A stretch of 64,000 nucleotides of DNA, from contig NC_135550.1 of assembly GCF_964340395.1 (NCBI RefSeq), positions 18,399,484 through 18,463,483 on the forward strand, given 5' to 3'. The notes below the pieces were generated by a model. That model did not search any database. It had not been told where the DNA came from and was given only the letters and a program-made list of their open reading frames with translations. Positions 1 to 26,700 of the stretch are shown piece after piece. Position numbers and translations under genes: made by a program. Position 1 is the first letter of the stretch; each line of letters opens with the position of its first letter. This DNA comes from Glandiceps talaboti. Taxonomy: Eukaryota > Hemichordata > Enteropneusta > Spengelidae.

Positions 1-9
1 ACATGTATC

Positions 10-440
10 CCTGATATCCAATCATGTCAATATTTTTCCCAAATCCTAAATTTGTGTTCAGTCTGTGCTGTCCAAATCAGTTATTTGATCATATCCCTGA
101 TATCCAATATCATGTCAATATTTTTCCCAATCTTAAATTTGTGTTCAGTCTATGCTGTCCAAATCAGTTATTTGATCATATCCCTGATATCCAATATCAT
201 GTCAATATTTTTCCCAATCCTAAATTTATGTTCAGTCTATGCTGTCCAAATCAGTTCTTTTAATAATATCCCTGATATCCAATTCCATGTGAATGCCAAT
301 GTAGTATTTTCCCTAATCCTTCTTAATTTGCGTTCAGTCTATGCTGTCCGAATCAATTCTTTTTATAATATCCCTGATATCCAATTCCATAGTAATATTT
401 TTCCTGATCTGTTCAGTGTTAATGTTGTCCAAACCCTTGT
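10..440. repeat. 87-88 bp minisatellite, about five copies
   Basis: Consecutive units begin near 24, 112, 199 and 287, each with the phrase TGTCAATATTTTTCCCAA or a decayed form, and each also carries TCCCTGATATCCAAT and CAAATCAGTT. Spacing is 87-88 bp and the last copies are diverged. The array lies in the SNAP-25 intron just upstream of the first visible exon. The open frames through it are repeat translations, not a gene. Confidence 0.9.
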
Positions 441-506
441 TGTCCGATGTGTTCCCCAGTGCTTGTGGTTTGTTTTTGTTATCATGATTTGTTTTTACAA
501 TTGTAG

Positions 507-555
507 AGTCAGGATCTTGGTATCAAGACAATAGTGATGTTGGACGAACAAGGAG
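507..555 (+). CDS. SNAP25: SNAP-25 alternative exon, copy A (first SNARE helix)
   Basis: The acceptor is TTGTAG and the donor GGAG/GTAAGG. It reads [16 protein letters not shown] in phase 0 and ends in phase 1. It matches the vertebrate segment [16 protein letters not shown], including the zero-layer Gln of helix 1. The length of 49 bp equals that of copy B. Using both copies would break the frame, so they should be mutually exclusive. Confidence 0.9.
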
Positions 556-3500
556 GTAAGGTTAAGGGTTTGGCATGAACCAAGTTTATGTCATTGAAAG
601 TAATTACTGCACAAACTTACCCCCAAAAAAACACCTCAACAACACAAAAGCAATATTTTAACAACAAAACCTCAGATTTTCAGTTTGTACAGTAATTACT
701 AATGATATTAACATTTTGACCATTTTTCCTAAACATTGTCTATCTTTTTTTCTTTCTCTCTCTCTCTTGATATCTTCCTTCTTCTCGTACTTGCCGCAAT
801 CATTTTCTCCATCAGAGCAAGGAAGCAGGGATCAACACACTTGTAATGTTGGATGAGCAAGGAGGTGACAGATCAAACCGTTTCTTTGTTGTTTTTCCTA
901 AGTGTTCTAGAAAGTAGACCGGTGGAACAAAATTAACTTTCTTTGCGTTAATAAATCAGACAATATCCCTTTTAATTTAACATAACCAATTCCGTTTTAA
1001 TAATTAACACCTTCTTGAATGTGCTCTTTGTTATTTACCCATATGATGTAGACCTTTATCCCTTTCTAATTAATTGCTATGTGAGTGTTTTTTTTAAAAG
1101 CATAACACAAAGAACTAAGTGAAAGTCTTTCAACAAAATTAAGTGTAATTCGTTTTGCAATTTGAATTGTCGTATTTGTTGTCCTTGAAACGTCAGAGTA
1201 TGCTGTGCTGATAATTTCATTGACATTGTAATGCATGTACGAACAGTCAAGTCTTGGGTTTTGTGACTATGTGTCTGCCTCTAGTTTGTATGTGTTCAAT
1301 CCCACTTGCATGAAAGCTTATTTATACTGGTGTTTTTTATTGTCTGCCTTGTACAACAACACTGTCCATATGCATGATTACTTTCTTTCCATTGAAGATG
1401 TGATATTAGAACTCATTTCATGTGGAAACAGTAGTCATAGTGGGGACATATCAACCAAGTTTTGATGGACAAAGGTCTAACAGACAAATGATGTCATCAT
1501 TGAAACATATCACTTGCATGCCCCATGTGTTCCCATACTCTTTCTCATTCACGTCATGTATCTGGAACGATATCACAGTTTGTCATGCATCAACATCACC
1601 ACTGAGTCTATACATTGTACAATGTAATTCTTTAATACCTGCAACGATAATCATCTTTAGTAGTCTGTGGAATGACTTTGTTTGAAATTACCAACTTTTT
1701 TACATCAAGGGCACACACTTGCAAGATAAACAGATTTCTCTAATCATACGCTTCCAACTGTGTTCTTTAAATGGCATGGCTGAGTAAACAACATACTTAT
1801 CTCTTTTTTTTCCCCTATTTTTTTGTAATTTCTTCAAAATAATGGCTAGCAAAATAATGGTATGATTATAAGGCATGTCAGCTTTGTACCACTGGGATGA
1901 AAGGTTTACACACAAGCACAGCAAACTCCGAATTCGTATTTGCGATAAAAGACTTTGTATTATCCGTAAAGTACTCATCATTTTCTCCTCAATAATCATG
2001 CTGAATGCCACCACTCGCAATCAAAATATTTATCTTTACCAACAAAGCAGAATAAAGATAACAGCTGATGGCATCGTATGCAATAATGCTTTGAATTGAA
2101 ATATCCTTAATCCAGAGCACATCTGGTTACTTAAATGTTAAATTAAATGACATTCAACCCCGTAACTTATCCCACTAAGATTAAGATAACGTCCATCGGT
2201 CAGGTACCAGCCAAACCCTAAGGATGCTTCCATATGATAATAACACAGGAATGTAGTTATAGTCAAATGGAAAAAGCTGTAGTTCCTGAATACCCAATCC
2301 ACCCACCTGCACAAGGAGAATTGAATTCAAAGTCTAATTTACTTTGAAATTTAATAAAATCATTACAATATGTATTATTATGTAATATGTAATTTTGAAG
2401 GCTTTGTGTACTGTGTGTTTAAGAAAATGAATTTGTATTGCATCGGTGTTCCTTAGAATAGGTATGGTTGTCATAATTGAAAGTAAGATTTGGAGAATAG
2501 CAAATAGCAAAATCCCTAGATATATTGATAAGGTTAATATTAGATAAATGTATGAAATCTTGTAGTTTAGTACCTTAGTTTAAAGTACGACAATGTAGTT
2601 AGATTACCAGCGATACATGGAATGGTTTGGTGATAAATTGGAGTTTATTTAGAGTTACTTCCACATGGAACATAACTAACCCACCCTCACATTTTGTAGT
2701 TGAGAATTAGCCATAACCACACCCCTCATTTCATACTGTAGCTGAGAATGAGCCGTAGCCCCTTCTGAGAATGAGATGTAGCCCTGTCCAAGAATTAGTT
2801 GTAGCCCCATTCCCTATGCTGTCACATCAAACTGTCCTGTGATGAGAGAAAGCACGCTGACGGAGATTACTACCATTTATGCATGCTGAAGTACAACATA
2901 AGAAATGGGTAGTTTTGTTTTGCCATTTCAGAGCAACTGGATCGTATTGAGGAAGGTATGGACCAGATTAATACTGACATGAGAGAGGCTGAGAAGAACT
3001 TAACTGGTCTTGAGAAATGCTGTGGTATTTGTGTCTGTCCATGCAAGAAGTAAGCATAGTTATAATCACTAACATTACAGAAAACAACAGCTAATAGTAA
3101 GGAAAAGTATTCAATATTAGGGTTGATGATGACCAACAGTACAATGTGTCTGTACTAATTGATCGTGCCTTCTTACAAGAGTCAACATTTTTGCTGTGAA
3201 TCAAAATGGTAAAACTAGGTTTGCATGTGAGTTACCTCATAGTAAAGGATAGGGGAAGGAGAAGCATTGTGTATCAGTGGCTTGTAATTTGGCACGCTGG
3301 TGTCCATCATTTAGGTTTTGCTAGCACAACTGAACTGAAGTTCAGTAGTTTACTACTTGCTCTATGATAAGTTCACCATAGCTACTGTATATTAGAAGAG
3401 TGACTAGCCATAGACTATGGAGTGACCCACCCAAGTAAATTGCAAAATTTCTTCTGAATACTCACAGTGAATCACCTACAGTTGTCTTGAAGTATACAGT

Positions 3501-5418
3501 CAATTCATACTACTCCTTCAAGTCCTGGCATTCTGTTCTTGAAAAGTCCTGGAAAGATGACATTTACTCTTGAAACATAAATTATGTCAAGAAACTCTTT
3601 TATTTTAATTGACAATGAGACTGTTCATCTTGACATTGCATGTTGCTGTCTGTTTGTTTGTGAGATGTACCACAAACGTACTTCCAGGAAATGGCATGGA
3701 AATATGGAAGTCATGGAAATAAATGTAATGTGAACTCTGAATTGGAGAAGTTCCGTGTTCCATGCATTGTTACTGATATTTTGTGATAAATACAACATGA
3801 TAGTATTAAAACTAGGTCTGAATGTTGAAACCACTAAAAACTAAATGACATTTGATTGTTTAAGTGATGGACTATAATGAAATTACTACTGTACATGACG
3901 TGATAGTTTACACTACTTCACTATATGTGAACAGTCATAAAAGTTGATGTGCAACATCATCCATTTTGCCTAATCCAGTCACCTGTAAAGCTCTTTTAAT
4001 GTCATGTATTCGTCAACAGAAACAAATCTATATTAAGACCAGGTAATAAATTAGCAAAAAAGGTCCTCTATCACAAAGGATCTTGTGTGGCGACTAATCA
4101 TGATAGATCATGATGTGTAACTGAGATGGGAAACCATTAGGTATGATCTATGTGTTTTGATTGTGTAGCAACAGTAATGATACTTATCAAACATTAAACT
4201 TACTTTACATTTGGCAAATAAAGCACAAAACAAGGTAGTAAAGCACCAATGTTAGATTAGGATTAAAATGTGGGTGTGAAAACAACTAGTCTGACACAGT
4301 TATAGAAATTTTTGGTCAAGAATGATATTTTAATTCCTATGGCTCCACTGATAAGGCCAAATAAAAAAAAGTTGTTTGGTTCCGGTTACCTGACCCCACC
4401 TAGTTTTCACGCCGAAATATAATAATAAAATAAATAATAAAATTGCGAAAATCATGAAGTCTCGCAAGAAATAGTGGGTGCGGAAACTGACATCAACTTA
4501 AAAAGACAATATAAAACTATTCTTCCAATCTGTAATGGCTTTACATCTGAAGGGAAGAAATAAACAACACAGAGAACATTTGGAAAACAATGGAAAACCT
4601 GAACTAGACACTCACACATGAAAAAAAATATGATAAAATAAAATAAAAAATCTACCTACCCCACCTATTTTAAAATTGAATGTAAGCGGAACCACACAAT
4701 TTTTTTTACACCTCTTAGATAATAGTGTATAGGATTTAAACACATCAAGAAGTGATTAGATTGAGATCCTAGGCTATCCAGCAGGCAGCCACACCTATTC
4801 AACAGTATGACATATGCAAGGCCAGTACATACACTACAATTATTTCTTGCCGAGCACAAAATGGAGAAATATATGGATAGGAATTAATTGGTCAAATGCC
4901 AGCCGAAGGGCTTCCAAAGTTGTCATCTTGCTTGAGTGCATACATCATAATCATTCCCAACACACCAAGCAGTGGCAGAGTGATATTTAATTATGCATGA
5001 ATATCATGTTGTTCACATTCAAAGCAAAGTCAGGTGTAATCATAGTAATGACACTGATACAGACGGAATGGATTGAGAGAGCTAGAGCAGAACTTTTATT
5101 GCGTTCAGTTTCTGTGATTGAAATGTGTTTGATAAGAGCCCGGCAAATTCAGCCAAGAAACATTGAATAAATAGTGAGATAAGCAAGCTCTGTCCAATTA
5201 CTATAAGTGATACACTGTTATGGATGGGTGCAAATAGATCTATATATGAAAACAGTGAACATGAAATTCAAAGACACAGCTCAAGTTTATTATACCGTAG
5301 TATAGATCTGATTGTATCCACCCACTCTGGTCTGTTACCTATTAGTTGGGCATGGCACAGATGTCACTTACTTATAAGCTTTTAGCTCCCAAAGAAGGAG
5401 CTTGAGAGATACCGAGCA

Positions 5419-5475
<57 letters not shown>

Positions 5476-8400
5476 ATCATCAATATCTCAAGAACCAGTG
5501 GCTTGTTTGAAATTAGATTTAGTTTTATAGAGATTCTATAAGACAATGCACAAGCAATGATTAAGTTTTGATAAACATCCTATGAATATTAAATGATGTA
5601 TTTGCATAAATACTGATTTTTGGTATTTACCGGTACATGTAGGCAATACCTTGAGAATACAAGGCAATACCTTGAGAATACAAACTTCAAATTTCGCATA
5701 ATTTGGTGTATACATTGATGATGATAACTAAGCACACATATCCCACAAAGCTTAATAGTGTAGCTTGTAATTTGAACAATTCATTTGCAAAATTAATGAT
5801 TTTCCCAATTCATTTGCAAAATTAATGATTTTCGGTAAATAGGCAATATCGAAAGTACAAGCAAAGAACAGAATTGTCAATGTTGCATCATACATATTAC
5901 ATGAAATGGGGGAGTTCAGATGCTATGCAGTCATATTATACACAAGATTTTATGGCTCTATACCTGTGATTTACATTTTTTATACATACAATTATACTGC
6001 CTTTGGTGATGAAAATAGCATAATGTATAAAAAGATTAAAGTCAGATAAATTTGCTGGAGGCCTTAAAAGGATATGAAGTATTGTATAAGACAATATAAA
6101 CAAAATCAGAAACAAGGCTGGAACATAAACTAATTCCGTGTGGTATAAATAATAGTGTTTTGTAGGAAACCTGAATAAGTTTATCTTATTATAACTGTTG
6201 TGTATGAGTTTGTTTGTTGATAACCCTTTTATTGTGTTGTATGATTGGTTGTTGAAGGTACCTTCAGTACAATTCAACACATTGTATCACAAGCAAGCCA
6301 AGTTGAACACATTAGAATAAAAAATATGGGGTTAATAGAATGGTCCATCTATGTTACAACAACACACTTCTACATCACTGGTTTTGCTGTGAGTCTAAGT
6401 ATGAATGAAAATGTTAAGAATCGCCCCCCCCCCCCCTCCCCTTTTTTTCCTGATTCATTTCTTGCTCTGGTTTGAAGCAAATCTGAGTGAACATTGTGAA
6501 AGGAAAGGATAACCTCTTAAATGTGTACATACGTGTGGTTTGTCCAGTGATATATAGCCAGATTGAGTTGACAAGCCATGTACACCTTCGCACACTACAT
6601 TTCAGTAACAGTTCACTCAAATGAACATTTTGAGCAACATGATATGACAGAACCCCATGATGTGTGAGAGTAAGCATGGCATACCCAGGTAGGGTATTTG
6701 CACAAAGGTTTGCAGTGTTCTCTGTGGCCATACTTTCATGTGCTTGAGAATATAAGTGCAGCAGAAAGCTCTACAAGACAAGTTAGTGCAAATACCACGA
6801 TTACCAACATACATGTATAGCACTCTTGCATCTTGGGTATCGTTATTATTACATTATGTTTAATATCGAAAAACAGCATAATTTAGTTACAAAATACAAC
6901 TGCATTGGCATGCTTTTTGAGCACCTCGTGGAATTAAGGTTGCTATTTTGATCCAAAAACTTAGTTATAATTAAATACAGTGTACAGGTTGGTATCAAGA
7001 GTAAAACAGATATATTTAGAGACAAGAGGAGGCTGAGAGGTGAAGATAGAAAGACAGATTACAATTGACTTTGAAGTACCCATTTCATTCCCAATTTCCC
7101 CTTGTGGGATCAATAAAGTATTTATTATTGTTATTATTATAACTATTATCTTACATAGCTACCCGTAAACAGAGATTAAAAAATGGCTTCATTATAGCAA
7201 ATATACCTGGTCCATTATTTTCCAGTCATATCTCCAACAACATAAATTTTGTCACCACCAGCTCAACATTCTTCGTATTTAAATTTCGTGAAATCTCAAA
7301 TGACCTTTGTGGAAACTCTGTCAGCCATAGTCAGTTTGATTCAATAATTAATAACACTGACTTTTTGTGTGTGTGATCTATTATGACAAGTTGGTGATAT
7401 GTCAACAATGCATGTTTCAATTATATGTGGCACAACATTAACAATTGATTGCATTGAGACGCAGGCATTCATCCGTTGGTAGCGACAAGCACTAAAGTTT
7501 AATCTAATCATTCACGTCATTGAACAAGGGGGCTGCACCTATTTGATTGGTTTCAAGCAAAGAAAACCTCTCAGTCTGACGGCTTTGTCTTCATAGATTT
7601 GTTCAGAGTCTGTGATAGCATATGATATTAATAACATGTTCATAGTCAGTCTGTGATAGCATATGATATATATATAGTGACATTATTTGACCATACGTTG
7701 CATTTGTGACGCCAACTCATTCAAATGTCATCCACATCACCCCCCATTCACAGTTTTCTCCTATGGGAGTGTAAAAAGTGTGGTTGGTGAAATTACGTCC
7801 ATCAAATTGTGTCAACGTCAAAGCCATGGAAATATGGATGTGCTCAAGGCAAGTGCACAGAGCCAAGTTGTTAGAAATTGTTGGCCATATCAATATACAC
7901 CAGGCAACAACTTGACCTGAAGAGGGTTATTAATGTATGGCTGTGCACTATAGTGTCATCTGTGTTTAAACATTGTGACATTTACCGATTTCAACCAAAC
8001 CTGGCACAAATGTCAGATCCTGTAGTTCAATATGTACATCACTTTATTGTGATGGCCACCGTATTTGTCATAAAATTCAGATTGTGAATAATAAATATAA
8101 GTTGAAATGTTGGGAGTATGCATTCAGCGAATCTCTGGTGCCCTTCTACCTTGTAATGACAAATGTGTATTAAAGTCAGGATTGTTGTAGCAACTATTCT
8201 ATCCAATGAGTTCAAAATTATGAAATGAAATTTGTTGGTGAAGTAGCTGACCAGACCTCAGTTACATAAAACTTCATGCAGCACACGTTGATAGATGGAT
8301 AACTGCTGTAAGACTGATTAATATGAAAGTCACGTCCACTTGATGATTACAGTCTCTTTCCCTATATTGTGAGTTTTCATGTCCCAACCAGATTACTGAA

Positions 8401-11400
8401 TTTTGATATTTAATTATAGCATTCAGACATTTGAATAGTAGAATGAGGGTAAACTTGAATTTCATGTAATCTTAATAGTGCAACAGTTGATCACACATTT
8501 AGATTAATATGTGGAACGCATTGTTGCCATGGTGTTGTCATAGTGAAGTAATTCAGGTAAATATTGACGTCAGATGATTAAACTGCAGTGTGTTTCTTTT
8601 AATCAAGGATGCATGTTTAGGATCCTGCAAATTCTACATTTGTCAGGTAGATGTATCATAAAATCCACTTAAAGGCTCAACGTGTCTTAACAACAACAAG
8701 TGTAATATATTGCCAACAGAGTCTGCCGATGTGATCGGTTTAGTTTAGAAATGTAGGTTGTACTGTATCTACATATTCTCAGCACCTATATATCACGTCT
8801 TTATCTTCTCTGACAGCTTTGGCAATTTTGAAAAGGGAGAAGACTACAAGAAGACCTGGAAATCGTCAGAAGATGGCAAAGTGGTATCTAGTCAGCCATC
8901 AAGGGTGTCAGATGATCGTAATGCATTGACTGGCCAAACTTCTTATGTTACAAGGTATATATATATATACCCCTCTCAGCTGTTAACAATCTAAATAAAA
9001 CTGACCTAAACTACTAGAAATCTTAGAATACATGGCTCTGTTCTGATATTTTGACAGTGAAAAAATAGCCTCAAGTGAGTCCTCATTCTATGACGTCATC
9101 AGAACTGTTATAAAATATATGTATCTGTTTGTCTTAAGCTAGCTACTGTCTTGTTATATATAGACATTAGATTGCAGGAATCACCTAAAAAGATGGTGTG
9201 ACACTGTTCTCATATTTTCAAGATGAAAAATGTTAAATTTCAAGAACTGTAAAGAGTTCATTAGCAGATATTGTACACTAAGAAATAGAACACAAAGTGC
9301 ATGCACCGTGTTGGATGGTCAAAGAATAGATCAGATTAACGTTAGTAAAAATGGAAAGACATAAATTATATTTTTGTTGCTTGATGGTGACAGGATAACG
9401 AATGATGCCAGAGAAGACGAGATGGATGAGAATCTTGGGCAAGTTAGTGGAATTGTGGGTAACCTGCGGCATATGGCAATTGATATGGGTAATGAAATAG
9501 AGGCACAGAATAGACAGGTTGATCGTGTAAACGAAAAGGTAGGTTTGGCTTGCCACCTAGTGTACCAGCTCTACCTGGCAACTACAAGAATTTATCTTTT
9601 TGTTGATATAATCTCAAGTTACTATATTCAATATTCCGTTATGTACAGTCTGAACAAGTATCTATGCGGCATTTTGCTTCAATGTATCTTTAACTTCTGC
9701 TATTTCTGATGTCTTCCAAATTATTTTCTCATATGGTAGTCTAAATATATTTTTTTCAGAAATTGAACTTCAAGCTGCAATTATTTTCACTCAGTGTTCA
9801 TTTTCGTAGTCTGAATAATTATCTGTCCAATATTTTTCCTGTTTCTTTAATCTATCATTGCTCATAATTTATTGCAATTTATTTTTCATACGATAATCTG
9901 AAATATTTATGCAGAAACAGCATTTCAAGCAGAGCTGCAATCTTGCTCACTGAAATGATATTGAAAATAGTATCACTTGTGATTTATGTGATTTGTCTGT
10001 CATGTGTTCAGGGATTTCCCCGTGACAAGCACAAACCTGATATGGCATTATCTGCAGACTAGATAACTTGTCACTTGGAGTATGTACATACATGGATTGA
10101 GAGACAAGGAATGCCAGATCATTCACACAATCCAACCTCTTACACCTGTCAGGAGTAGTCATTATACAGACTGTTGATGATAAACTTGTAAAAAGTCAGA
10201 GTTTGTTGACTCAAGCTTAGAGCGTGGAACTCTCTGAAGACATAGGTTTTATATTTGGGTGTATGTGTAATCCTTGTCAACATTGATTTTTCCCCTAGGT
10301 ATAATGAATGAAGTTGTCCCAGTGACTGCACCAGTGTGTTTATTCTAGTTCTATGTTTAACTGTACCTGTCTCTCTTTTCTCTCATCTGGAAGGTTTTAT
10401 AGGTCTTTTGCTTTACTAGTAGATTGATGGTTTGTGATAGATGGTGATTTAGCAGCGTAGTCAAGATGTCTTTCCTGTTTGTATTATCTCAGGTTTACTG
10501 TCCTCAATTGATATGCAGGTCACATCTGCTCGTTTAATTCCACTTGAACTGATGTGACCAGCAGATCAGTTAGTAGTGAATTCCCATCCACTAAGGGACG
10601 ATCGCGCAATGTCACACAAGCTCAGTAAGCGAACTTTGTTCATTTGGGGGAGGGAGTCTGGCATCAATGTGATTGCTGAAGTGCATTTTCGCACTTCTAT
10701 CCAAATTTCGATGGAAAACTTTCACCCTTCAATGGTAACAGCTTTTGTATTTATTACTGAAATATTGATAGGTGATAAAAATGTACTTCTCATGTAAGAT
10801 ATGGTGTTGGGTTTCTGGTAGGATTTTAATGTGTTTACAATCATGTTTTTACATTACCTAGATCGTAGTGGTGTGACTGATACAGTTTTCATCGTAGTTT
10901 ACATCATATATAAATGTTTGATTCACACTTGTGAATGTTCCTTTAGGGGGAGGTGGGGGGGGGGGGGGGGGGGTGTTTTGACCTAGCTTGTGCAACATTG
11001 TGCGATGATCCCTAGGATAAAGACATGTCAGCTTTACAATCATGACATTTTTACTCTGATCAGTGTGTGTAGACTTGAGATAGAGATACCAAAAACAGTA
11101 AATTTATAAATTAAAAGTCAGAGATCGTAATAAGACATGTCTTAACTAACTTTTAAGCACTTGTGTTTCTCCTCTATAGTTGCTGTGCCCAGTGCTGCAC
11201 ATAGTTCTCTGTATATCCTCCACCATTTTAGTGTCCCCCTTGTTTCCAGATAGAAATTGGAATCACTCTGTATTGTTGTGTGTCCTCCACCATTATAGTG
11301 TAAACTCTTTCACCTTGTTTTCAGATAGAAAATTGGAATCACCCTGTATTTTGTATGTCTCCTCCTCCTTAGTATAACCAATTCACCTTGTTTCCAGATA

Positions 11401-14400
11401 GAAATTGGAATCACTCTGTATTTCCATTTCAGCTGTTACTGATTATTTGATGTTTAGTTTCCAAGCGTGGTGCCATACTCCAGAGTAGTACTAGAGAATC
11501 CACTTTATACCTGATAGTACCTATATATATTAGCCATTCTTTAAACTCCCATCCATTTAGTTTTAAAAAGGTCCCACTAACTTCCACCTATAGCAACTGT
11601 GACTAACATGATCAGAGTATATGCCATGGTCAAAGAGATTTATAAAAAGAGTAAACAGGCACATATGTAATGCAGGGAGAAATATTGGGATACAATATAT
11701 AGACGGGTTTGATGAGTTTAGTGATAACGTGGCCTTACCATAAGTTCCCATTGACCATGGCAAATAGTTTGGGTTTGTGAGATTATTATGCACTTGTGTT
11801 ATCTTCTATCACTTACTGTAAGGCTATCTCCACTCCACCGAGGTACACTCCATGTCTGCTGTAGCATTGTGACTTTATAATGCACACATCATACCCACAA
11901 CTGGGTATGAGCCTCTGCTGCTCTCTTTCTCTCTATCTCTTTCTCTCTACCATTTCATCTCATTATTGTAATCCATCAACATAATCAGTTTTGATCAAAA
12001 TCTCTACTCTCTTTTTTTCTTGTAGTTTAATAACAAGAACTTTTTACAAAAATTTCTCAAATTTTTTATTCAACTTCATACATAATTAATCTCACATGAA
12101 TTTATTACTGACAAAATGTTTTATCATTTTTCTCTCTGCTTACCAAATTTTACGTTGGATTTAAACGTTATAATTTTTTTTTGGAATATTTTTGATGCGT
12201 AAACGCTCACTTATCAACCGTGCGTGGTTCAGGCTCTGTCCAATGTAGACCGTCTGTCAGCTGCAAATACTCGGGCAGCTAAACTACTCAAAGACTAGGC
12301 ATGTACTGTATAATCTACTCTTCAAGTGTGGCAATTTCTACCCAAAGCTTACATCAATCTGCATGAAGACAGGAAAACGCTGCAATTTCCATTTCTGCAC
12401 AACTATCAAGAGACTGTGGTATTTCAGGATTTGAAGCAATGCTAGCAGTTACCAGGCTTTTTTACTATTTAGCCACTTTTTAGATCTCTTTCTTTAACTC
12501 TGAAAACCCGAAATTCTTTCCTCCAAAAATAACTAATTCTATGCATAAGACACTAATCCTTGCTACTTTTTTTTGGCGTATTTACTCAAACCTGAAAACC
12601 CAGCATACTTTCCTGAGAACCGATCATCTTTCCACCTAAACATCGTCAACTAATTCAACACATCTTTTGATACAATCCTCTAGTACTCCATTGCTCAATT
12701 AATCATGTTTTCAGCTCGCTTTCTCTTGATTAACTTTATGACATGTTCGATCTTTCTTCTTTTTTTTGCCGTGAAATTGAGTGTCAAAAACTAATCAAGC
12801 ATTTCTCCATACACTAGCCATTTCATCTGTTTTTTCCCTTCATTCCCATTTTGCCATTACTCATTCCCAGTATTCCTGTTTGCTTCCATCCTTCTCTACT
12901 CCTTCTCGTCTCACCATTCTCTTGGTGGTTGATGCATCTGTGGTTGAGTCGTGGCGCTTGGAGCAAATTCTGTTTGCTAGCATGAACAAACTGCCATCCT
13001 GCATCATGTAATAACTGTTGCACCTAAATGTTCAAAGTGTGTGTATGTGTGTGTCTAAGTTCTAATTTGTGGTAGTTGTATTTTTTTTGTTATGTGGACT
13101 AACTTTATTAAAAATTTAGCATGATATGCAACATCTTTCCTTCTATGCTTTTTCTTCTTCTTCTTCTTCTTCTCCTTCTTCTTTTTTTATCTACTTCTAT
13201 CAGGCATCTTCAAATGTCTTACGAATTAAGGCAGCTAACACCCGAGCCAGTCAAATCCTCCACAAGGGAAAGGGTCAAAAGGGTGACACATAAACCAGAG
13301 TAGATCGTTGACACGGTCAATATCAAGTTCACTTCTTGCCAGAAGTCTCAACTTTACAAATGAATCTAATATATGTGTGTGTGTGTGGACTTTTTGCTGT
13401 CAAAGTGGTTGATAGTATTGCTGTTGTGAGTGTGTGGTCACAGTTGATTCTAATATAATTAAATGTAGCAGGTTTTATAACAATTCTAAGTCTCTAATTA
13501 TTTAAGAATATTTTCTTTCATTTAGTTTTCTTATATTATGAATAACAAGAATTTTCCTGTATATTAGGAGGCACTCTCCTGGGAACTTCGGCAACTTTTA
13601 TATTGTCTAACTTATTTTGAGTTCAATAATCTCTTTATTATATTTTTACGGCAACGTATAGTATGATTGTTCTTACGGTTTGCAATATTTATGAACACAT
13701 CAGCTATACGTTTCCCAGTGTCATTGACAATCTGTTTCTGTTTTTTGAACTTGTAACAAGCAATACAATGAGGACATACAGATTAGTTTGTATTTTGGTT
13801 TCTATTTGCCAGTTTTATAATGCTGTGTTGTAGAATTTGTCAGCATAGAGTTAATAGTCTCACGTTGAGATCTTTACTTTTATAAACTTAGTGTGCATAT
13901 GTAAAGTAATAGAGTTTTTCTCTTTCTCTATATCTGTGTGTCTATCTGGTGGTTTCCTTCTTTTCTTTTTTGTCTTACCTTCGTTGTTTCCCATCGCTGG
14001 TCTCATCTTGTAATTTCCTTGTGTGGTTTCTGTACGTCTTATTCAGAGCCGGTTGAATGCTGCCCGTATTGGTCAGGCCAACACTCGGGCCACCAAGATC
14101 CTGAACCAAAGCTAAAAAGATTTGAAGTCGCTGCATGAGGCTGGGAAAAAAATACAATGCATGAAGCAGACATCTCAGCTCCTTTTATCACTCACTCATT
14201 CATTCACTAATTCCCCAATTTTGCAAAAGTTTTGGTTCGTTTCCTTCCATTTCCCAACACTTTGTAGTTTACTGCTCATTTTATATCAATAGTTTAGAAT
14301 ATCTAGATTGTGGTGTCATACTTTATTAGTTCAATTAGACTAGCGCAATAGTTGCCTATCTTCTTGCTTTGTTGTATCTTAACACATACATTAGATGACA

Positions 14401-15863
14401 GTAACACTCGACCTATATATGATGGCAAACATAGTGATGCACAACTAATTGAAAAAATCTTCTTTTAATAGTCCAATTTATTATTAACACCAAAAGTTCC
14501 CAGCTCATGCGATCTTCTTGCTTGTATAACACTTATCACATTGTCAGTGACACCAAAAGTTCCCAGCTCATACAATCTTCTTGCTTGTAAAACACTTATC
14601 ACATTGTCAGTGACACCAAAGTTACTTTTTCTCTCTCCACTCAAATTGCTTATTATATGGCCTACTGTTCTTCTATACTTGTACAAAAATGTTGACAGGT
14701 GCAACTATTCCTATATGATACAGGGAAAAATTCGTAAGCCATTACTAAAGACAGATCAGCCATGCTTTAAAAAAAGTAGAAGTGTAAAATGATACAAAAA
14801 CATTGATCTACTTGTACATCTCTAGTAATGTTTCTTTCATATCAGTATATAGTTGTTCAAAAGTGGCTTACATTTAAATAAGATGCTCTTTTTTTCCTCC
14901 TGTTTGTGTCTGCCTATCCTTCTTTCTCTTGGACAACTTCCAAATTTTAGTAGCTGTCTTTTTTTTTGTTAGGTCTATTTGATATTCATAGCTGGTTGCA
15001 TGTGATAAGAATCCTGTTTTAGCAACTTAACAGACTCAAAAAAGCTGTCGAAGGAATGAAAGTTGCTGCATGAGCCTGGGAAGATAAAGTGCAGTTCTTA
15101 CTTTGAAAAAAGAAATTACAGAAAAGGAGTAAATAATGAAGTTGTTTATCATTACATATTTCACACAAATACACAACATATGAACTACATGTATGCTTCA
15201 TTAACCCGAGTAATGTGTGAATTGTGTCATGGACATCATGCATCTTATAAAACCAAAACACACACATGACACTCCCCACCCCCATCTTCCCTTCAAAGTA
15301 CATTATTGGGGTAAGTGTCCACTACTTATTCCAAGCACACAGCACTTCCATATTTTGTTCACTCCACTCCACTCCATCCCTTATTAATCTCGGTGTTTCC
15401 CTTTCCTAAAGCTTCTTTTTTTTTTAAATTTTAAGTAAAACTGGTTTTGTAGTGTTGTATGTGTGTGTCGTTTTTTTTTTTGTGCCTTTCCTAGGTTGCC
15501 AGCCACAGCAGCAGTTGTTCAAGTTTGATAGGAAATAGCCATTTACCGTATTATAATTTGATTTTTTTTCTTACAGCTAATACCCCATTCTTGTTTCTTC
15601 AGTTATATTTCCACCCACTCCTATTGGTTTGCAGTTTTTAGTGTAAAAGTGTTAATATTTGTATAATGCATGATGGTGTCCTGATCATTTTTTACCCATT
15701 TGTCTTTTTTTATGATTTTGACACCCTGTAAATTTTATGATTTATGTTGACAGTACTGTTGATATGTTTTATCCCTGCTCTCCCTCCTCTCTAGGCCGAA
15801 TCCCTAGACAACCGTATCCAGGTTGCTGACAAAAGAGCTAAAGATATCCTCCGAAAGCAATAG
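507..15863 (+). CDS. SNAP25: SNAP-25/SNAP-23-type t-SNARE, partial at 5' end, with alternative exons
   Basis: This gene encodes a Qbc-SNARE that contributes two helices to the four-helix bundle driving vesicle fusion at the plasma membrane. Exons seen: two alternative 49-bp exons (507-555 or 816-864), 2932-3049, 8817-8954, 9394-9538, then one of four terminal exons (12233, 13204, 14047 or 15795). All phases agree: 1, then 2, then 2, then 0. Visible landmarks are DEQG with the first ionic-layer Gln, then [10 protein letters not shown], a palmitoylation-type cluster CCGICVCPC, the linker, and [14 protein letters not shown] with NEIEAQNRQ carrying the second ionic-layer Gln. Five cysteines and the word AREDEM resemble SNAP-23, while the rest resembles SNAP-25, which suits an unduplicated invertebrate orthologue. 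The N-terminal residues (about 38 in human) must lie upstream of the window. Identity is secure from family knowledge; isoform use is inferred. Confidence 0.95.
816..864 (+). CDS. SNAP25: SNAP-25 alternative exon, copy B (first SNARE helix)
   Basis: The acceptor is ATCAG and the donor GGAG/GTGACA, weaker than that of copy A. It reads [16 protein letters not shown], closer to vertebrate SNAP-25 than copy A is. It has the same length, phases and ending as copy A and lies 260 bp downstream of it. The four or five differences fall in the first part of the exon; the stretch VMLDEQG is identical. Confidence 0.9.
2932..3049 (+). CDS. SNAP25: SNAP-25 exon with end of helix 1 and cysteine cluster
   Basis: Starts after TTTCAG and ends at AAGAA/GTAAGC. 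It reads [14 protein letters not shown], then [11 protein letters not shown], then the cysteine cluster CCGICVCPC. The cluster is the S-palmitoylation region that anchors this otherwise soluble protein to the membrane. It has five cysteines, as in SNAP-23, not the four of vertebrate SNAP-25. It corresponds to vertebrate exon 5, which is itself duplicated as 5a/5b in vertebrates; I found only one copy here. Confidence 0.95.
5370..5620. repeat. Dispersed repeat carrying (GTCT)n
   Basis: Perfect GTCT repeats run from about 5422 to 5475. They are preceded by AGCTCCCAAAGAAGGAGCT and followed by ATCAATATCTCAAGAACCAG. Read on the minus strand, this resembles the layout at 22660-22880, where TTTTAGATATCGA runs into GACAGACA. 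The microsatellite therefore probably sits inside a mobile or dispersed repeat. Confidence 0.6.
7085..7150 (+). mobile_element. 3' tail of a retroposon (LINE/SINE-like)
   Basis: The phrase TTTCCCCTTGTGGGATCAAT, then AAAGTATT, runs directly into repeated ATT/GTT units. Tails of the form GGGATCAATAAAGT plus a short simple repeat are typical of non-LTR retrotransposon or SINE 3' ends in aquatic animals. The 5' extent is not clear and no reverse-transcriptase frame is visible. Confidence 0.5.
8817..8954 (+). CDS. SNAP25: SNAP-25 exon, inter-helix linker
   Basis: Starts after CTGACAG with the third base of a split codon and ends at ACAAG/GTATAT in phase 2. It reads [14 protein letters not shown], then SSQPSRV and LTGQTSYVT. 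This matches the flexible linker between the palmitoylated cysteines and helix 2 (YKKAW and SQPARV in vertebrates). The linker is the least conserved part of the protein. Confidence 0.95.
9394..9538 (+). CDS. SNAP25: SNAP-25 exon, N-terminal half of second SNARE helix
   Basis: Starts after GACAG, completing an Arg codon, and ends at GAAAAG/GTAGGT in phase 0. It reads [19 protein letters not shown], then [20 protein letters not shown]. The Gln of NEIEAQN is the ionic zero layer of helix 2. The exon ends just before layer +3, so the alternative terminal exons supply layers +3 to +8. Confidence 0.97.
9539..12232 (+). other. SNAP25: SNAP-25 intron before the terminal-exon cluster
   Basis: No further exon is recognised. 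Contents: a diverged local duplication at about 9715-9950, a G-run at 10945-10974, and a 76-bp tandem repeat at 11193-11420. Confidence 0.7.
11193..11420. repeat. 76-bp tandem repeat, three copies
   Basis: Three units each contain CAGATAGAAATTGGAATCAC (middle copy with one extra A) and a CTCCACC/CTCCTCC phrase, spaced about 76 bp apart within a SNAP-25 intron. Confidence 0.8.
12233..12298 (+). CDS. SNAP25: SNAP-25 alternative terminal exon T1
   Basis: Starts after GGTTCAG in phase 0. It reads [19 protein letters not shown] plus KD and a TAG stop, 21 residues. Layer positions +3 to +8 fall on A, N, L, A, A, L, matching the spacing of vertebrate SNAP-25 (A, N, I, A, A, M). No AATAAA signal was seen before the next exon; ATTAAA occurs near 13107. 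Confidence 0.9.
   Translation, partial: ALSNVDRLSAANTRAAKLLKD
13145..13185. repeat. (TTC)n pyrimidine tract upstream of exon T2
   Basis: About a dozen TTC/CTT units sit 20 to 60 bp upstream of the T2 acceptor. The tract may act as a long polypyrimidine tract or a splicing-factor binding site for alternative splicing; that role is inference. Confidence 0.7.
13204..13293 (+). CDS. SNAP25: SNAP-25 alternative terminal exon T2, with basic extension
   Basis: Starts after CTATCAG in phase 0. It reads [20 protein letters not shown], then a tail KGKGQKGDT and TAA, 29 residues. Layers +3 to +8 are A, N, I, A, A, I. The Lys/Gly-rich tail runs about seven residues past the usual end of SNAP-25, which is unusual for the family. 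Confidence 0.88.
   Translation, partial: ASSNVLRIKAANTRASQILHKGKGQKGDT
14047..14115 (+). CDS. SNAP25: SNAP-25 alternative terminal exon T3
   Basis: Starts after TTATTCAG in phase 0. It reads [19 protein letters not shown] plus NQS and TAA, 22 residues. Layers +3 to +8 are S, N, I, A, A, I. ANTRATK is very close to vertebrate ANQRATK. Another frame is open here but has no SNARE pattern. Confidence 0.9.
   Translation, partial: SRLNAARIGQANTRATKILNQS
14487..14625. repeat. 63-bp tandem repeat, about 2.2 copies
   Basis: ACACCAAAAGTTCCCAGCTC begins at 14487 and 14550, and a third partial copy starts at 14613. The array lies between terminal exons T3 and T5. Confidence 0.9.
14974..15085 (+). pseudogene. 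SNAP25: Possible relic of a further SNAP-25 terminal exon
   Basis: The segment GTTGCTGCATGAGCCTGGGA near 15062 closely matches the DNA just downstream of exon T3 (TCGCTGCATGAGGCTGGGA, near 14126). Upstream, AAGAATCCTGTTTTAGC resembles AAGATCCTGAACCAAAGC of T3. Stops interrupt every SNARE-like reading, so this looks like a duplicated and decayed T3 exon plus its flank. The call rests on short, gapped similarity. Confidence 0.35.
15795..15863 (+). CDS. SNAP25: SNAP-25 alternative terminal exon T5 (last)
   Basis: Starts after CCTCTCTAG in phase 0. It reads [19 protein letters not shown] plus RKQ and TAG, 22 residues. Layers +3 to +8 are A, L, I, A, A, I; layer +4 is Leu where the other copies have Asn. 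ADKRAKD is the most diverged version of the ANQRATK segment. Confidence 0.92.
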   Translation, partial: AESLDNRIQVADKRAKDILRKQ

Positions 15864-17160
15864 AACCACCTATGGACATGTAGCCTTAGTGCTGCTATCA
15901 ATTTTTTTTTTTTGTAAATATTTCTAGTGGATAAGTTTTTTGATTAGCAATTATTTTTTTAATTAATGAATACATGTTCCCAGGCGCTTGCAGGCAGCAT
16001 TTAATTCTTGTCATGAAGAGAAAAAAATGGAAATAGTCAGAGTCAAAACATTTTCAGGAGTTTGACTTCTAGTGGTAAACAGCTTCTCAATATTACAATT
16101 TATGGGTTTTTTTCGCTGTCTTTTCTATATCAAGCAGTGTTATCATAATTACAGACATGATTTTCAGGTATTTTGCCATGATAATAATTTTGGCAGTAAG
16201 TAGTGGTAGTGTAGATAGTTGTGCATTTCAGTCAACTTAAAATTATTCCTTTTGCAAAAATAAAGAGTAATAAATCAAATAGTAATTGAAATGAGTTTAA
16301 AAAAAACGACAAAAAATGAGATAAAAAGAAAGCCAGTGTAAAGATTCTCAAATGTATATAGACTGTAAAGGTTGACAAATATGTCAGTGAATGTAAATCT
16401 TGGCTGGTGAAAACTAACCAGAGAGACCAAATTCCTGTAGTCAAGTCATGGAATGGAGGCACGACTACAGTATCTTTTAAGATGTTACAAACTTAGACAA
16501 AGTAAAACAAGTCATAGAACGTATTTAAATGTACAGAATGTCACAATGTTTTATTAAGATTCTCTCTTTTCCTCTGTCACCGTGGTTACAAGGTGAAACT
16601 GATCGTGATGAGAACAAAGTAAATTATAGAATCCATTAAAAGCTAACTTAAAGTTAGTTGACTATAAGATCCCAATTTACTCTTAGACTTTGGAGTATTC
16701 AATTGAGAGATGTCTTGTTGTTTTTTTATTGTCTACTTCCTAAGAATCGGATTTACTTAATGTAGTCGGTGGTTAGTGTTACACATCAACAGTTTTTATT
16801 TCTACCTGTATGAAACTTTTCACGGTCTCAAACAGCAGAGAAATATGTATTCCATGGCTGACATTGTTCGGCATTTTTCGGGCTTATTTCAAAACATTTG
16901 TAGAGTAAACCTATACCTGTATATTCTCTAGAGGTTCGTGTACATTCCAAGAGAAACTCCTGAGTGATTAAACATTGCATCTGTTATCTTAGACCCTGAA
17001 CGGTTTCATATATCATCTTACTTTCTATGTCTATCCTTAAAACATTGACATTTCATGTTAATACCACCTGTTCAAGTTAATGCTTTCAGAAATTGGTTCT
17101 GCCTTCCGACATTGTACTATTTATAGAGGCAAGAGGAAATGGTCAATTATATGTAGACAT

Positions 17161-23479: not shown

Positions 23480-23569
23480 AGTATTTTCTCAAAATGTCGA
23501 AGATGGCGCCTGTTATGTGCGTAAATTCTGTGCGTGCGTTTCTCGTTTCTGAGTTCCTGTGTAATCAAA
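23480..23569 (+). promoter_or_regulatory. PPP5C: PPP5C proximal promoter / 5' UTR with YY1-like motif
   Basis: AAGATGGCGCC at 23500-23510 is one base off the YY1 motif AAGATGGCGGC, which is common just downstream of TATA-less start sites in housekeeping genes. No TATA box is seen. The exact start of transcription is not visible. Confidence 0.4.
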
Positions 23570-23708
23570 ATGGCCACCACCAGTAATTGTAACGATGTTG
23601 GAGCAGAAGAAACTAATCTCAACGGAAAAGTGCAAGATATGGTAATAAGTGAAGAAAACAAACAAAAAGCAGAAGATGTTAAAGAGAAAGCAAATGAATA
23701 TTTTAAAG
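23570..23708 (+). CDS. PPP5C: PPP5C exon 1
   Basis: The ATG context is AAAATGG. It reads [10 protein letters not shown], an acidic non-conserved leader, then [19 protein letters not shown], the first TPR helix. Donor AAAG/GTAACT, phase 1. The frame is open about 12 codons further upstream to another ATG, but the in-frame MATTSN start best fits family length. Confidence 0.9.
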
Positions 23709-26700
23709 GTAACTACATGACTGATCTGAATACTTCAGGAACGTTATGTTTGTGTTGGCTCGATGATCACCAATTTATCCGGCATGTCTTGTCGAGAGTG
23801 ACATGCATGTTAACGTGAACGTTCCAGTCCTTGGGTCAAAATGATTGCCCAGAGTCATTACAATTTGCAGTGCAATTAGTACACTTTTGAGTTTTTTCAT
23901 CGTGTCTTCCGTACGCTGGATACCCTGACTAGTCGACTCGACTCAACGTTGATGTTCGAAAGGTCATGATCCGATGTTTTCACTCACTGCTTTCACGAGA
24001 GTTGAGTGTATATAGGTCAAGCCCTTTCTGTGTGATTGACTTACGCCTTACATGTACAACAGTGAGATTTCGCAAGTCATGAGTTTCATAGATTGAATGC
24101 ATGATGTAAACTTGACTTGGGATGTAGGCCCGGTAGTGGTCGAGGTTTTCTCAAAACGATCCCCACCCCGGCCCACACCCCACCCCACCCCACCACCAAC
24201 CCATGCCCGCACCATACGGGACCACCACCTATAACACATATCTTCACATATCACTGACCACACAGTGTACTGGTATGTAAAATATAGAATCTGATTAAGA
24301 TAAAGTGATATGGTTATTATATCAGCTATAATTTACATATTGTACAGGAATGTAACAAAAGTTATAGTTTTGATACATATATTTTCTTGGTTTGTGTATC
24401 CATGGTGACTATTATTAGATATATTAATCAGAGCTTTATGAGAATGAGACGACAATCATTTGTGCTGTGTATCATCAAAACTCGCTACTTGCTGTGATAT
24501 ATGATGTTAGATTCTCGACAGTGAGCCATTTTTTTAAATGAGAAACCAGCAAATTTCTTGTGAGTGAATATGAGAGCATATTTTGGCAGAATTACCCTCA
24601 TGTTTGTCATCAAAATATACCAAGAATTAATTCCCAACTTGTACTATAGCTGATTTGTAAAGAACTAAGTGTGCTTGCACTGGGAACTACTAAAAATCTA
24701 CATTTGAAATACCTGTGGTATAGCAGATACAACTGTACTAGTAAGACATGAAGCTGTTATCGTCTCCAGCCACGTAAATGTTCTAAGTTAGACACTCCTC
24801 ACTCAGTGACCTAGAAGTCGCATTTTTCATAACATCACAGGTTGCCTTCAGTTTACAAATTCATGTTTTTTGTAAACACAGAATTGCAATATATACTATC
24901 AATTTTCTTACACCATCTGATTGAATGCTTGTACACAAAAGCAGCAGGTGCAAATTGCATAGGACTGTCAATCACCAGAGCCTTTTATTCCTCTGTGTAT
25001 GTAAATTACTTTGTTTTAGTTTTGAAGAGAGGAAATTACACAGAAATTATGACAGAGAATTGGGTCCATACAAAATTTGCCAAATTCGTCACTTGAAAAT
25101 AGTAATCAAAATCACCTGTCTTTGAAGTGTTGCTTAATCCACTTTTTGTTATACTGAGAATGAGATGCCAACCAGAAACCGTTTCTCATTGTAATCTCAT
25201 TCTTATATTAGCTCAACGTAATCTCTCTTATTACCATACATAGGTATCACAGGAAAAAAAAGCATGACTCAACAAGTGACCTATGACATCTAGAACTATT
25301 CTGAAATTTGTCACCAAGGAACCTGTCTTTCAATAATTTGATCTATTTACTCTGTTCCTACATAGTTTATGTTGTGATAGGTTGCTGTGTACAAAGTATT
25401 GACACAAGAATTAGATATTTAGTCCCTAGTATGTTTAACTTTGTTCAGTCAAGCAAAATACAAGTGACATAAGGGGCCCTGTCTGATGGGAAGTGACAAA
25501 ACCCTTGCATCATGAGTATTTTTTGGCTGAATGAGAGAACTAAAAACAGTATTTGAGATATGCAAGCTAAATTTAGCAGAAATAGCCTATTATACTACAG
25601 GTCTTGATATATATACAAATGATATGTTATTGACCTGGGTTGTGTTAGCCACTTTTACAACATGGAATTCATTTAAAAACATATATTTGTAGTCAGTTGT
25701 ATTACAATTATTGTGAACTATTGTAATGTTAAGCTTTATACTGCCATGTGATTAGTGTCCACAGACCATGACAACAGTGTAATAATTTTTCCGTAAACTG
25801 GGGTGTCCTTGAGCAATGCTTCTTACAATTTGAAGTGCAAAGTATTAGTATGGCGTCCTCCAGGTGTAAGGTTACAAATTTAACTATATATTGCCATGCT
25901 TTATATAACCAAAATCACCAAACACCCTGTCTTGCTTTAATGTATCACGAACACATTCAGCCCCCTCTTGTTCATGTTTGTTCATAGTGGTAGAAATGCT
26001 ATCATGACTGTAGCATGATTTAGTTCCAATATGGAATGGCTTCTCAACTATAACATCAATATATATCGGAAAACATACAAATATTATGTTGTATAAAATG
26101 AAGCAGGGAGAACATGACTAATTGTGTCTGTTTAGACATGCCAAGAATTCTATCTGATTATCTGTGAGTGTTCTTGCCATTCAGGTAATTTGCATAGATT
26201 TACATATTATCTTGTACTACAGTTTGATAGGGAACCACAATAACATACCCAGGAAACTTAGGGTAAATTTTACGTACTTGTTAGAACAAAAATGCTCACT
26301 GTGATGTTATTTTGTTTATTTGTGTAGGTAAAGAATACCAGGAAGCTATCACATACTATACCAAAGCTATCGATCTCAATCCATGTGTTGCTGCTTACTA
26401 CGGTAATAGAAGTTTTGCATATCTGAAAACTGAGTGTTTTGGATATGCATTGGAAGATGCCTCTAAAGCTTTAGAACTAGATAGGTCTTACGTCAAGGTA
26501 GGTTTATATATACTAAATTATGGTGTCTTAGATTCATCTTAATGGTGTGATTCAAAAACTGGTATCAGGAAAGTAAGGTGTCTTGTCGTAAAGAGTTGAT
26601 AGATAAGTCATGATAACATTCATAAGTCAGAAGTATTTTCCAGCTGAATGTAGACACATATTGGGGAATGATATAATTATACCCCTAACAAGTGTAATGT

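What the first reader, a model, noticed from the sequence alone, without database searches (positions are those of the whole stretch)
12233..15863. Tandem cluster of four intact alternative terminal exons in a SNAP-25 gene
Four separate exons (12233-12298, 13204-13293, 14047-14115, 15795-15863) all start in phase 0 after an AG acceptor, encode the same C-terminal half of SNARE helix 2 and carry their own stop. Hydrophobic layers +3 to +8 are kept in all four (A/S, N/L, I/L, A, A, I/L), while surface residues differ strongly, as expected if all are functional and selected. Vertebrate SNAP25 has a single terminal coding exon. I know of no described SNAP-25 gene with a four-way choice here, but I could not search for one. 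Changing this segment could tune bundle stability or complexin/synaptotagmin binding.
Basis: partly seen in the sequence, partly recalled or inferred. Interest (0 to 1): 0.88.

Follow-up and report, generated by a model that had tools for sequence, protein, structure and literature searches.

The report
SNAP-25 gene with four alternative endings
An animal SNAP-25 gene, which makes a protein that fuses vesicles with the cell membrane at nerve endings, carries four different versions of its last coding exon and two interchangeable versions of an earlier one, so one gene could build up to eight variants of a core part of the release machine; RNA evidence is still needed.

Summary
Four exons (T1 12233-12298, T2 13204-13293, T3 14047-14115, T4 15795-15863) each start in phase 0 after AG, encode layers +3 to +8 of the second SNARE helix of SNAP-25 and end in their own stop. 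They are the four best of 1,067 open AG sites on that strand. Codon positions 1 and 2 differ in 0.39 and 0.38 of comparisons, third positions in 0.72, about as much as flanking DNA, so the four look selected. A decayed fifth copy (about 14963-15093) shows what loss of constraint does here.

Using both or neither breaks the frame. All eight combinations are open from an ATG 32 kb upstream of the window. The searches run found one SNAP-25-class gene.

Likely mechanism: four acceptors compete for one donor at 9538, perhaps sharing one poly(A) site, since the first AATAAA after exon 7 lies at 16259. Usage is inferred; no RNA or related species could be examined. New variant of a known kind (vertebrate SNAP-25a/b exon switching).

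The parts
507..555 (+). Exon 4x, first copy of the duplicated exon 4 ([16 protein letters not shown], 49 nt)
   Evidence: donor GAG|gtaagg in the top 0.1% of GT; acceptor weaker (top 13.6% of AG)
599..700 (+). Inverted repeat (19-nt arms, 95% complementary, 64 nt between) in the intron between exons 4x and 4y; one match in the genome search; possible splicing hairpin (lead only)
   Evidence: (whole intron: z -1.88, 11 of 200 shuffles as stable)
816..864 (+). Exon 4y, second copy of the duplicated exon 4 ([16 protein letters not shown], 49 nt)
2932..3049 (+). Exon 5 (end of SNARE helix 1 and the cysteine cluster); one copy found
8817..8954 (+). Exon 6 (linker)
9394..9538 (+). Exon 7 (SNARE helix 2, up to layer +2); last shared coding exon, phase-0 donor
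12233..12298 (+). Terminal exon T1 with TAG stop
13204..13293 (+). Terminal exon T2 with a C-terminal extension (GKGQKGDT) and TAA stop
14047..14115 (+). Terminal exon T3 with TAA stop
14963..15093 (+). Relic R: decayed fifth copy related to T3 (acceptor changed, coding part broken by gaps)
   Evidence: alignment to 14027-14161, 0 of 200 shuffle pairs as good; family D4; (the acceptor CAG of T3 reads CAT in R)
15795..15863 (+). Terminal exon T4 with TAG stop; best-scoring acceptor of the exons scored
16259..16274 (+). Two AATAAA poly(A) signals, the first ones downstream of exon 7; probable shared 3' end

Best explanation
This is a complete SNAP-25 gene, the only one found in its genome, in which tandem exon duplication created two splicing choices. 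At exon 4 the frame allows only 4x or 4y. At the 3' end the donor of exon 7 (9538) is joined to one of four acceptors (T1-T4). The first one joined supplies layers +3 to +8 of the Qc SNARE helix plus the C-terminal tail and ends translation. Transcription most likely runs on to the AATAAA pair at 16259/16269 in every case, so isoforms differ by acceptor choice, and downstream copies are 3' UTR or intron. The four ends keep the core of the bundle and vary the surface and the tail, so they would tune late zippering and the contacts made by the SNAP-25 C-terminus (for example G beta-gamma). Shown: anatomy, frame logic, coding selection. Inferred: use of all four in mRNA, the shared poly(A) site, the functional consequences.
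For: Exon anatomy, phases and splice signals. Open frame from the ATG at L019:8228 to the stop in 8 of 8 exon combinations, 208-216 aa; PF00835 at 1.1e-21 in 2 of 2 isoforms scanned. Exon 4: 49 nt each; both included gives a stop at codon 44, neither at codon 31, counted from exon 3. Selection: mean difference at codon positions 1/2/3 is 0.39/0.38/0.72, intron flank 0.67, 3' flank 0.74; permutation P 0.00015. The decayed copy R still aligns with T3 through its flanks, so it is probably younger than the T1-T4 splits, yet has lost acceptor and frame: copies here do decay when unconstrained. The AATAAA gap 8994-16259 is the longest in the window (7,265 nt); the chance of none in 9539-16250 given local composition is 0.035 or 0.020. 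Vertebrate Snap25 is also regulated by mutually exclusive exon choice, in part through RBFOX2 (PMC10676425, passages).
Against: No RNA evidence at all, and no related species to show that each exon is kept. Only 19 codons align, and synonymous change is saturated in 4 of 6 pairs, so dN/dS cannot be estimated well. T4 is the most divergent (L at layer +4, D at the K201 position). The AATAAA deficit is partly a matter of composition: ATAAAA (3 against 10.9 expected from the rest of the window) and AAAATA (3 against 8.7) are also rare in 9539-16250, and the deficit is not significant for the cluster alone (P 0.11 or 0.07). GCATG enrichment is not significant (P 0.095). The genome searches with single T exons did not even return the sister exons, so 'no copies elsewhere' holds for close copies only.
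Confidence: 0.75

Rival explanations
1. Four classical alternative last exons, each with its own cleavage and poly(A) site, so that choice is made by 3'-end processing as much as by splicing.
For: Each exon has its own stop; ATTAAA lies at 13458 (165 nt after the T2 stop) and at 13107 (809 nt after the T1 stop), and weaker variant hexamers are scattered through the region. Homologous 3'-terminal exons with several poly(A) sites exist, e.g. human CapZ beta (PMC3228551, passages).
Against: No AATAAA between 8994 and 16259 against 8.6 expected in 9539-16250 at the window's rate, or 3.4-4.1 with local composition; between the T3 stop and T4 neither AATAAA nor ATTAAA occurs, only weaker variants.
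Confidence: 0.3
2. T4 (or another one) is the working end and the others are minor or fading duplicates, kept open by chance or used as stop exons that lower expression.
For: T4 has by far the best acceptor (top 0.1%) and the canonical poly(A) signals behind it; a decayed copy (R) shows that duplicates die here.
Against: Third positions are saturated while positions 1 and 2 and the layers are kept; T1-T3 resemble rat exon 8 more than T4 does (42-45 against 31). Neutral copies at saturation should have lost frame and layers (inference).
Confidence: 0.15
3. The T exons are internal cassettes that carry stops and are spliced onward through their own donors to a common 3' UTR exon.
For: A usable donor lies 27 nt after the T1 stop (12325, 6.1 bits, top 3.2% of GT), close enough to escape decay by the usual 50-nt rule (recalled).
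Against: In the 200 nt after the T3 stop the best donor-like site scores 1.9 bits; for T2 the best is 132 nt after the stop (5.9 bits) or lies inside the reading frame (5.4 bits).
Confidence: 0.12

Closest known systems
Vertebrate SNAP25 exon 5a/5b (SNAP-25a/SNAP-25b)
   Same: Tandemly duplicated exon of a single-copy SNAP-25 gene, one copy per mRNA (PMC2581893, abstract and passages; RBFOX2 control in PMC10676425, passages).
   Different: There exon 5 is duplicated (9 of 39 residues differ); here one exon 5 was found, and exon 4 (two copies) and the terminal exon (four copies) are duplicated. The authors of PMC2581893 place the exon 5 duplication in early bony fish, so the cases are independent.
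Homologous alternative 3'-terminal exons (human CapZ beta; Drosophila muscle myosin heavy chain has differentially included stop-bearing exons)
   Same: Alternative coding ends, for CapZ beta of similar sequence (PMC3228551, passages). [quoted passage not shown]
   Different: Those are not SNAREs, and four homologous copies inside a SNARE helix were not among the passages I read.
Alternative C-termini of other SNAREs and partners (C. elegans UNC-64 syntaxin, mammalian syntaxin 3 and VAMP1, Drosophila complexin); recalled, not looked up
   Same: C-terminal diversity of a fusion protein by alternative 3' exons.
   Different: As recalled, those mainly change the membrane anchor or an accessory tail; here the SNARE helix itself (layers +3 to +8) is exchanged.

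Membership tests
SNAP-25 family (Qbc SNARE) | SNAP-25 family Pfam profile | tested here: met
   PF00835, E 1.1e-21, 77 bits, cut-off 25, 2 of 2 isoforms scanned; DUF5089 also listed, below its cut-off
SNAP-25 family (Qbc SNARE) | Two SNARE helices joined by a linker with a cysteine cluster; alignment to solved SNAP-25 over its length | tested here: met
SNAP-25 family (Qbc SNARE) | Layers +3 to +8 of helix 2 kept in each alternative end | tested here: met
   +4 is Leu instead of Asn in T4 and +3 is Ser in T3
Mutually exclusive exons (exon 4x/4y) | Homologous neighbours of equal length and phase; both or neither breaks the frame | tested here: met
   49 nt each; 11 of 16 residues identical by inspection of the translations; frame logic
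Mutually exclusive exons (exon 4x/4y) | Exactly one copy in each mRNA | not testable with these tools
   no RNA data
Alternative last exons with separate poly(A) sites | A poly(A) signal behind each exon | tested here: inconclusive
   AATAAA only behind T4; ATTAAA or weaker variants behind the others
Vertebrate-type exon 5a/5b duplication | Two copies of exon 5 | tested here: not met
   one copy of exon 5 found by tblastn in the window's first 20 kb plus 20 kb upstream and in the whole window with rat SNAP-25

The most novel reading that the evidence does not exclude
One invertebrate SNAP-25 gene works as a combinatorial 2 x 4 switch. Exon 4 changes the helix-1 stretch that holds primary synaptotagmin contacts (the K40 position is K in 4y and Q in 4x; D51 and E52 are kept), and the terminal exon changes the last six layers and the C-terminal tail. 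Neurons or secretory cells could then set clamping and triggering separately from late zippering and G beta-gamma inhibition, by splicing, without SNAP-25 paralogues.
Probability: 0.3. Interest if true: 0.8.

Novelty: new variant of a known kind. Interest (0 to 1): 0.62.

Why it matters
SNAP-25 is among the most conserved parts of the release machine, and its last layers are usually studied by artificial mutation. Here evolution offers four apparently working versions of exactly that segment on one backbone, plus two of the helix-1 centre: a natural structure-function series for late SNARE zippering, synaptotagmin contact and G beta-gamma braking. It also indicates that exon duplication in SNAP-25 arose more than once, at different exons, which makes it testable whether splicing replaces the gene duplications (SNAP-25/SNAP-23) that vertebrates use.

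Tried and rejected
Chance or low-complexity origin of the four exons: rejected. Recent assembly duplication: rejected, third positions are saturated. Copies elsewhere in the genome or retrocopies: none found, but the single-exon queries returned only their own exon and not even the sister exons, so diverged copies would be missed; T1 was searched only joined to exon 7. RBFOX-type GCATG sites as the regulator: suggestive only (9 in 12233-15863, circular-shift P 0.095; TGCATG 6, P 0.074; within 300 nt downstream of the six alternative exons 5 GCATG, P 0.095, and 3 TGCATG, P 0.143), so not claimed. Paired docking/selector RNA in the terminal cluster: I looked over the 18 inverted repeats listed for 9539-15863 and saw none that joins all four acceptors to one site; not tested further. 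Rfam: no match in 1-17000 at gathering scores. dN/dS by YN00 failed in 6 of 6 pairs; NG86 gave dN 0.38-0.87 with dS saturated in 4 of 6 pairs and 1.78 and 1.27 in the other two. The first two searches for exon 2 by tblastn gave nothing because I used an option that tblastn does not have; one search is the valid one. I did not predict a structure: a lone SNARE chain would say little.

Full report
WHAT WAS CHECKED. Scored without gaps against rat SNAP-25 residues 185-203, they take ranks 1 to 4 (45, 43, 42, 31) among 1,067 AG sites followed by 19 open codons on the plus strand; the fifth scores 9. On the minus strand the best of 1,028 scores 18, and the best in 20 first-order Markov sequences of 64 kb, one strand each, is 19. 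Acceptor scores are in the top 1.8% (T1), 2.2% (T2), 6.7% (T3) and 0.1% (T4) of 3,642 AG sites, by a simple weight matrix whose frequencies are recalled general values.

THE GENE. The window lies at C2:18399484-18463483 of a 590-Mb genome in 47 contigs. Searches with rat SNAP-25 and with the window's helix 2 find one SNAP-25-class gene, plus weaker matches on C19 (39% and 51% identity), C5 (30% and 32%) and elsewhere on C2 (33%); by recall these look like SNAP-29/SNAP-47-type or other SNARE genes, which I did not test. Exon 2 with the start ATG is at L019:8228 (MEDDDMRTELEILQQKSDQVTDE) and exon 3 about 3 kb upstream of the window. Exons 4x, 4y, 5, 6 and 7 are at 507-555, 816-864, 2932-3049, 8817-8954 and 9394-9538. 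Joined, 8 of 8 combinations of one exon 4 and one T exon are open from ATG to stop, 208-216 residues. Two of the eight were scanned: Pfam PF00835 matches at 1.1e-21 in both. One was compared with solved structures: the best relative is SNAP-25 in 6mdm at 2.4e-77.

Exon 4 is present twice, 49 nt each, [16 protein letters not shown] and [16 protein letters not shown]; they are the two best plus-strand open AG sites against rat exon 4 (64 and 69, next 14). Because 49 is not a multiple of three, including both or neither shifts the frame and gives an early stop. The two differ at codon positions 1/2/3 in 0.19/0.06/0.56 of 16 codons (NG86 dN 0.17, dS 3.03). Two times four gives eight possible proteins. 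The intron between them holds an inverted repeat of 19-nt arms (599-700) with no other match in the genome search; the whole intron folds only moderately better than shuffles (z -1.88, 11 of 200). This is a lead, not a finding.

SELECTION. Over 19 aligned codons and all six pairs of T exons, mean differences are 0.39 (position 1), 0.38 (position 2) and 0.72 (position 3). The intron 21-80 nt upstream differs in 0.67 and the 60 nt after the stop in 0.74 of sites, compared without gaps. Permuting positions within codons, the same way for all pairs, gives P 0.00015 in 20,000 permutations. Third positions are thus about as different as flanking DNA, while the protein is kept: invariant R7, A11, R14, A15, L19 and the layers. 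An internal control is relic R (about 14963-15093). It aligns with T3 and its flanks (score 50, 0 of 200 shuffle pairs as good), so it is probably a younger copy. The acceptor CAG of T3 reads CAT in R, the next AG is out of phase by two bases, and the coding part is broken by gaps. By this local DNA alignment T1-T3 (1 of 200) and T3-R (0 of 200) are clearly related, T2-T3 weakly (15 of 200), and the other seven pairs of segments not (60 to 198 of 200). The T exons are therefore old duplicates related through their protein.

HOW IT PROBABLY WORKS. The donor at 9538 is strong (top 0.4% of GT), and whichever acceptor it meets fixes the C-terminus. I favour a shared 3' end. The first AATAAA downstream of exon 7 are at 16259 and 16269, the next at 18485, and the gap 8994-16259 is the longest in the window. 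At the window's rate 8.6 would be expected in 9539-16250; with local composition 3.4-4.1, and none then has a chance of 0.035 (first order) or 0.020 (second order). For 12299-16250 alone it is 0.11 or 0.07. Other A-rich hexamers are also rare in 9539-16250 (ATAAAA 3 against 10.9, AAAATA 3 against 8.7 expected from the rest of the window), while TAAAAA and AAAAAT are not. So this is suggestive only, and ATTAAA at 13107 and 13458 leaves separate ends for T1 and T2 possible. RBFOX2 controls the vertebrate exon 5a/5b choice and binds downstream of the second exon, with GCAUG in two of three peaks (PMC10676425, passages). Here GCATG occurs nine times in the terminal cluster, which is not significant (P 0.095).

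CONSEQUENCES (INFERRED). The terminal exon covers layers +3 to +8 (layer numbers recalled) and the tail. The last three residues of mouse SNAP25 are needed for G beta-gamma binding to SNAREs and inhibition (PMC10541194, one passage), and a peptide of residues 189-206 competes for G beta-gamma binding (PMC12302718, passages). The tails here are [15 protein letters not shown] and RKQ, and the position of K201 is K, Q, K, D. In exon 4 the position of K40, mutated together with D51, E52, E55 and D166 to disrupt the primary synaptotagmin interface (PMC9811660, passages), is K in 4y but Q in 4x. All of this is transfer from mammals.

ORGANISM. COX1 lies on C40 in three copies spaced 15,435 bases. 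The order around it is ND2, tRNA-Asn, Trp, Ala, Tyr, COX1, tRNA-Ser, COX2 (gene names by my reading of the frames, Trp from the anticodon tca), and 3 of the 4 ATA codons in COX1 fall at places that, as recalled, are usually isoleucine. From recall this fits an enteropneust hemichordate; no call names the species.

PRIOR ART. Searches of open-licence full text: SNAP-25, alternative splicing, terminal exon, invertebrate; 2 papers; SNAP25, mutually exclusive exons, mollusc; 0; SNAP-25, echinoderm, isoforms, SNARE; 6; SNAP25, alternative last exon; 6; SNAP-25, exon duplication; 3; SNAP25, hemichordate; 4; at least three of five terms; 70 papers, 20 listed, so 50 not seen. By titles and abstract beginnings, none of those listed describes alternative SNAP-25 ends or an exon 4 duplication. 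I read passages of six papers and none in full. Gene annotations of hemichordates may already list such isoforms; I could not look.

VERDICT. It is a new variant of a known kind, tandem exon switching in SNAP-25, at new exons and with more copies, inside the SNARE helices themselves.

Noticed in passing
window 599-700: Inverted repeat (19-nt arms, 95% complementary) in the intron between the two exon 4 copies, with no other match in the genome search; could be a hairpin that controls their choice.
   Followed up: partly
window 12360, 14132, 14158, 15067, 15667: TGCATGA occurs 5 times in the terminal exon cluster out of 12 in the window; the stretch around it is shared by T3 and relic R (14116-14152 and 15051-15087).
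   Followed up: partly
window 8994-16259: Longest stretch of the window without AATAAA (7,265 nt), from before exon 7 to behind T4.
   Followed up: yes
window 23525-33747: Plus-strand frames downstream that by recall look like serine/threonine protein phosphatase 5.
   Followed up: no
window 14478-14603: Two tandem copies of a 63-nt unit (89% alike) downstream of T3.
   Followed up: no
G000:C40 (L014-L016): Mitochondrial contig with COX1 three times at a spacing of 15,435 bases, probably an assembly effect of a circular molecule.
   Followed up: partly
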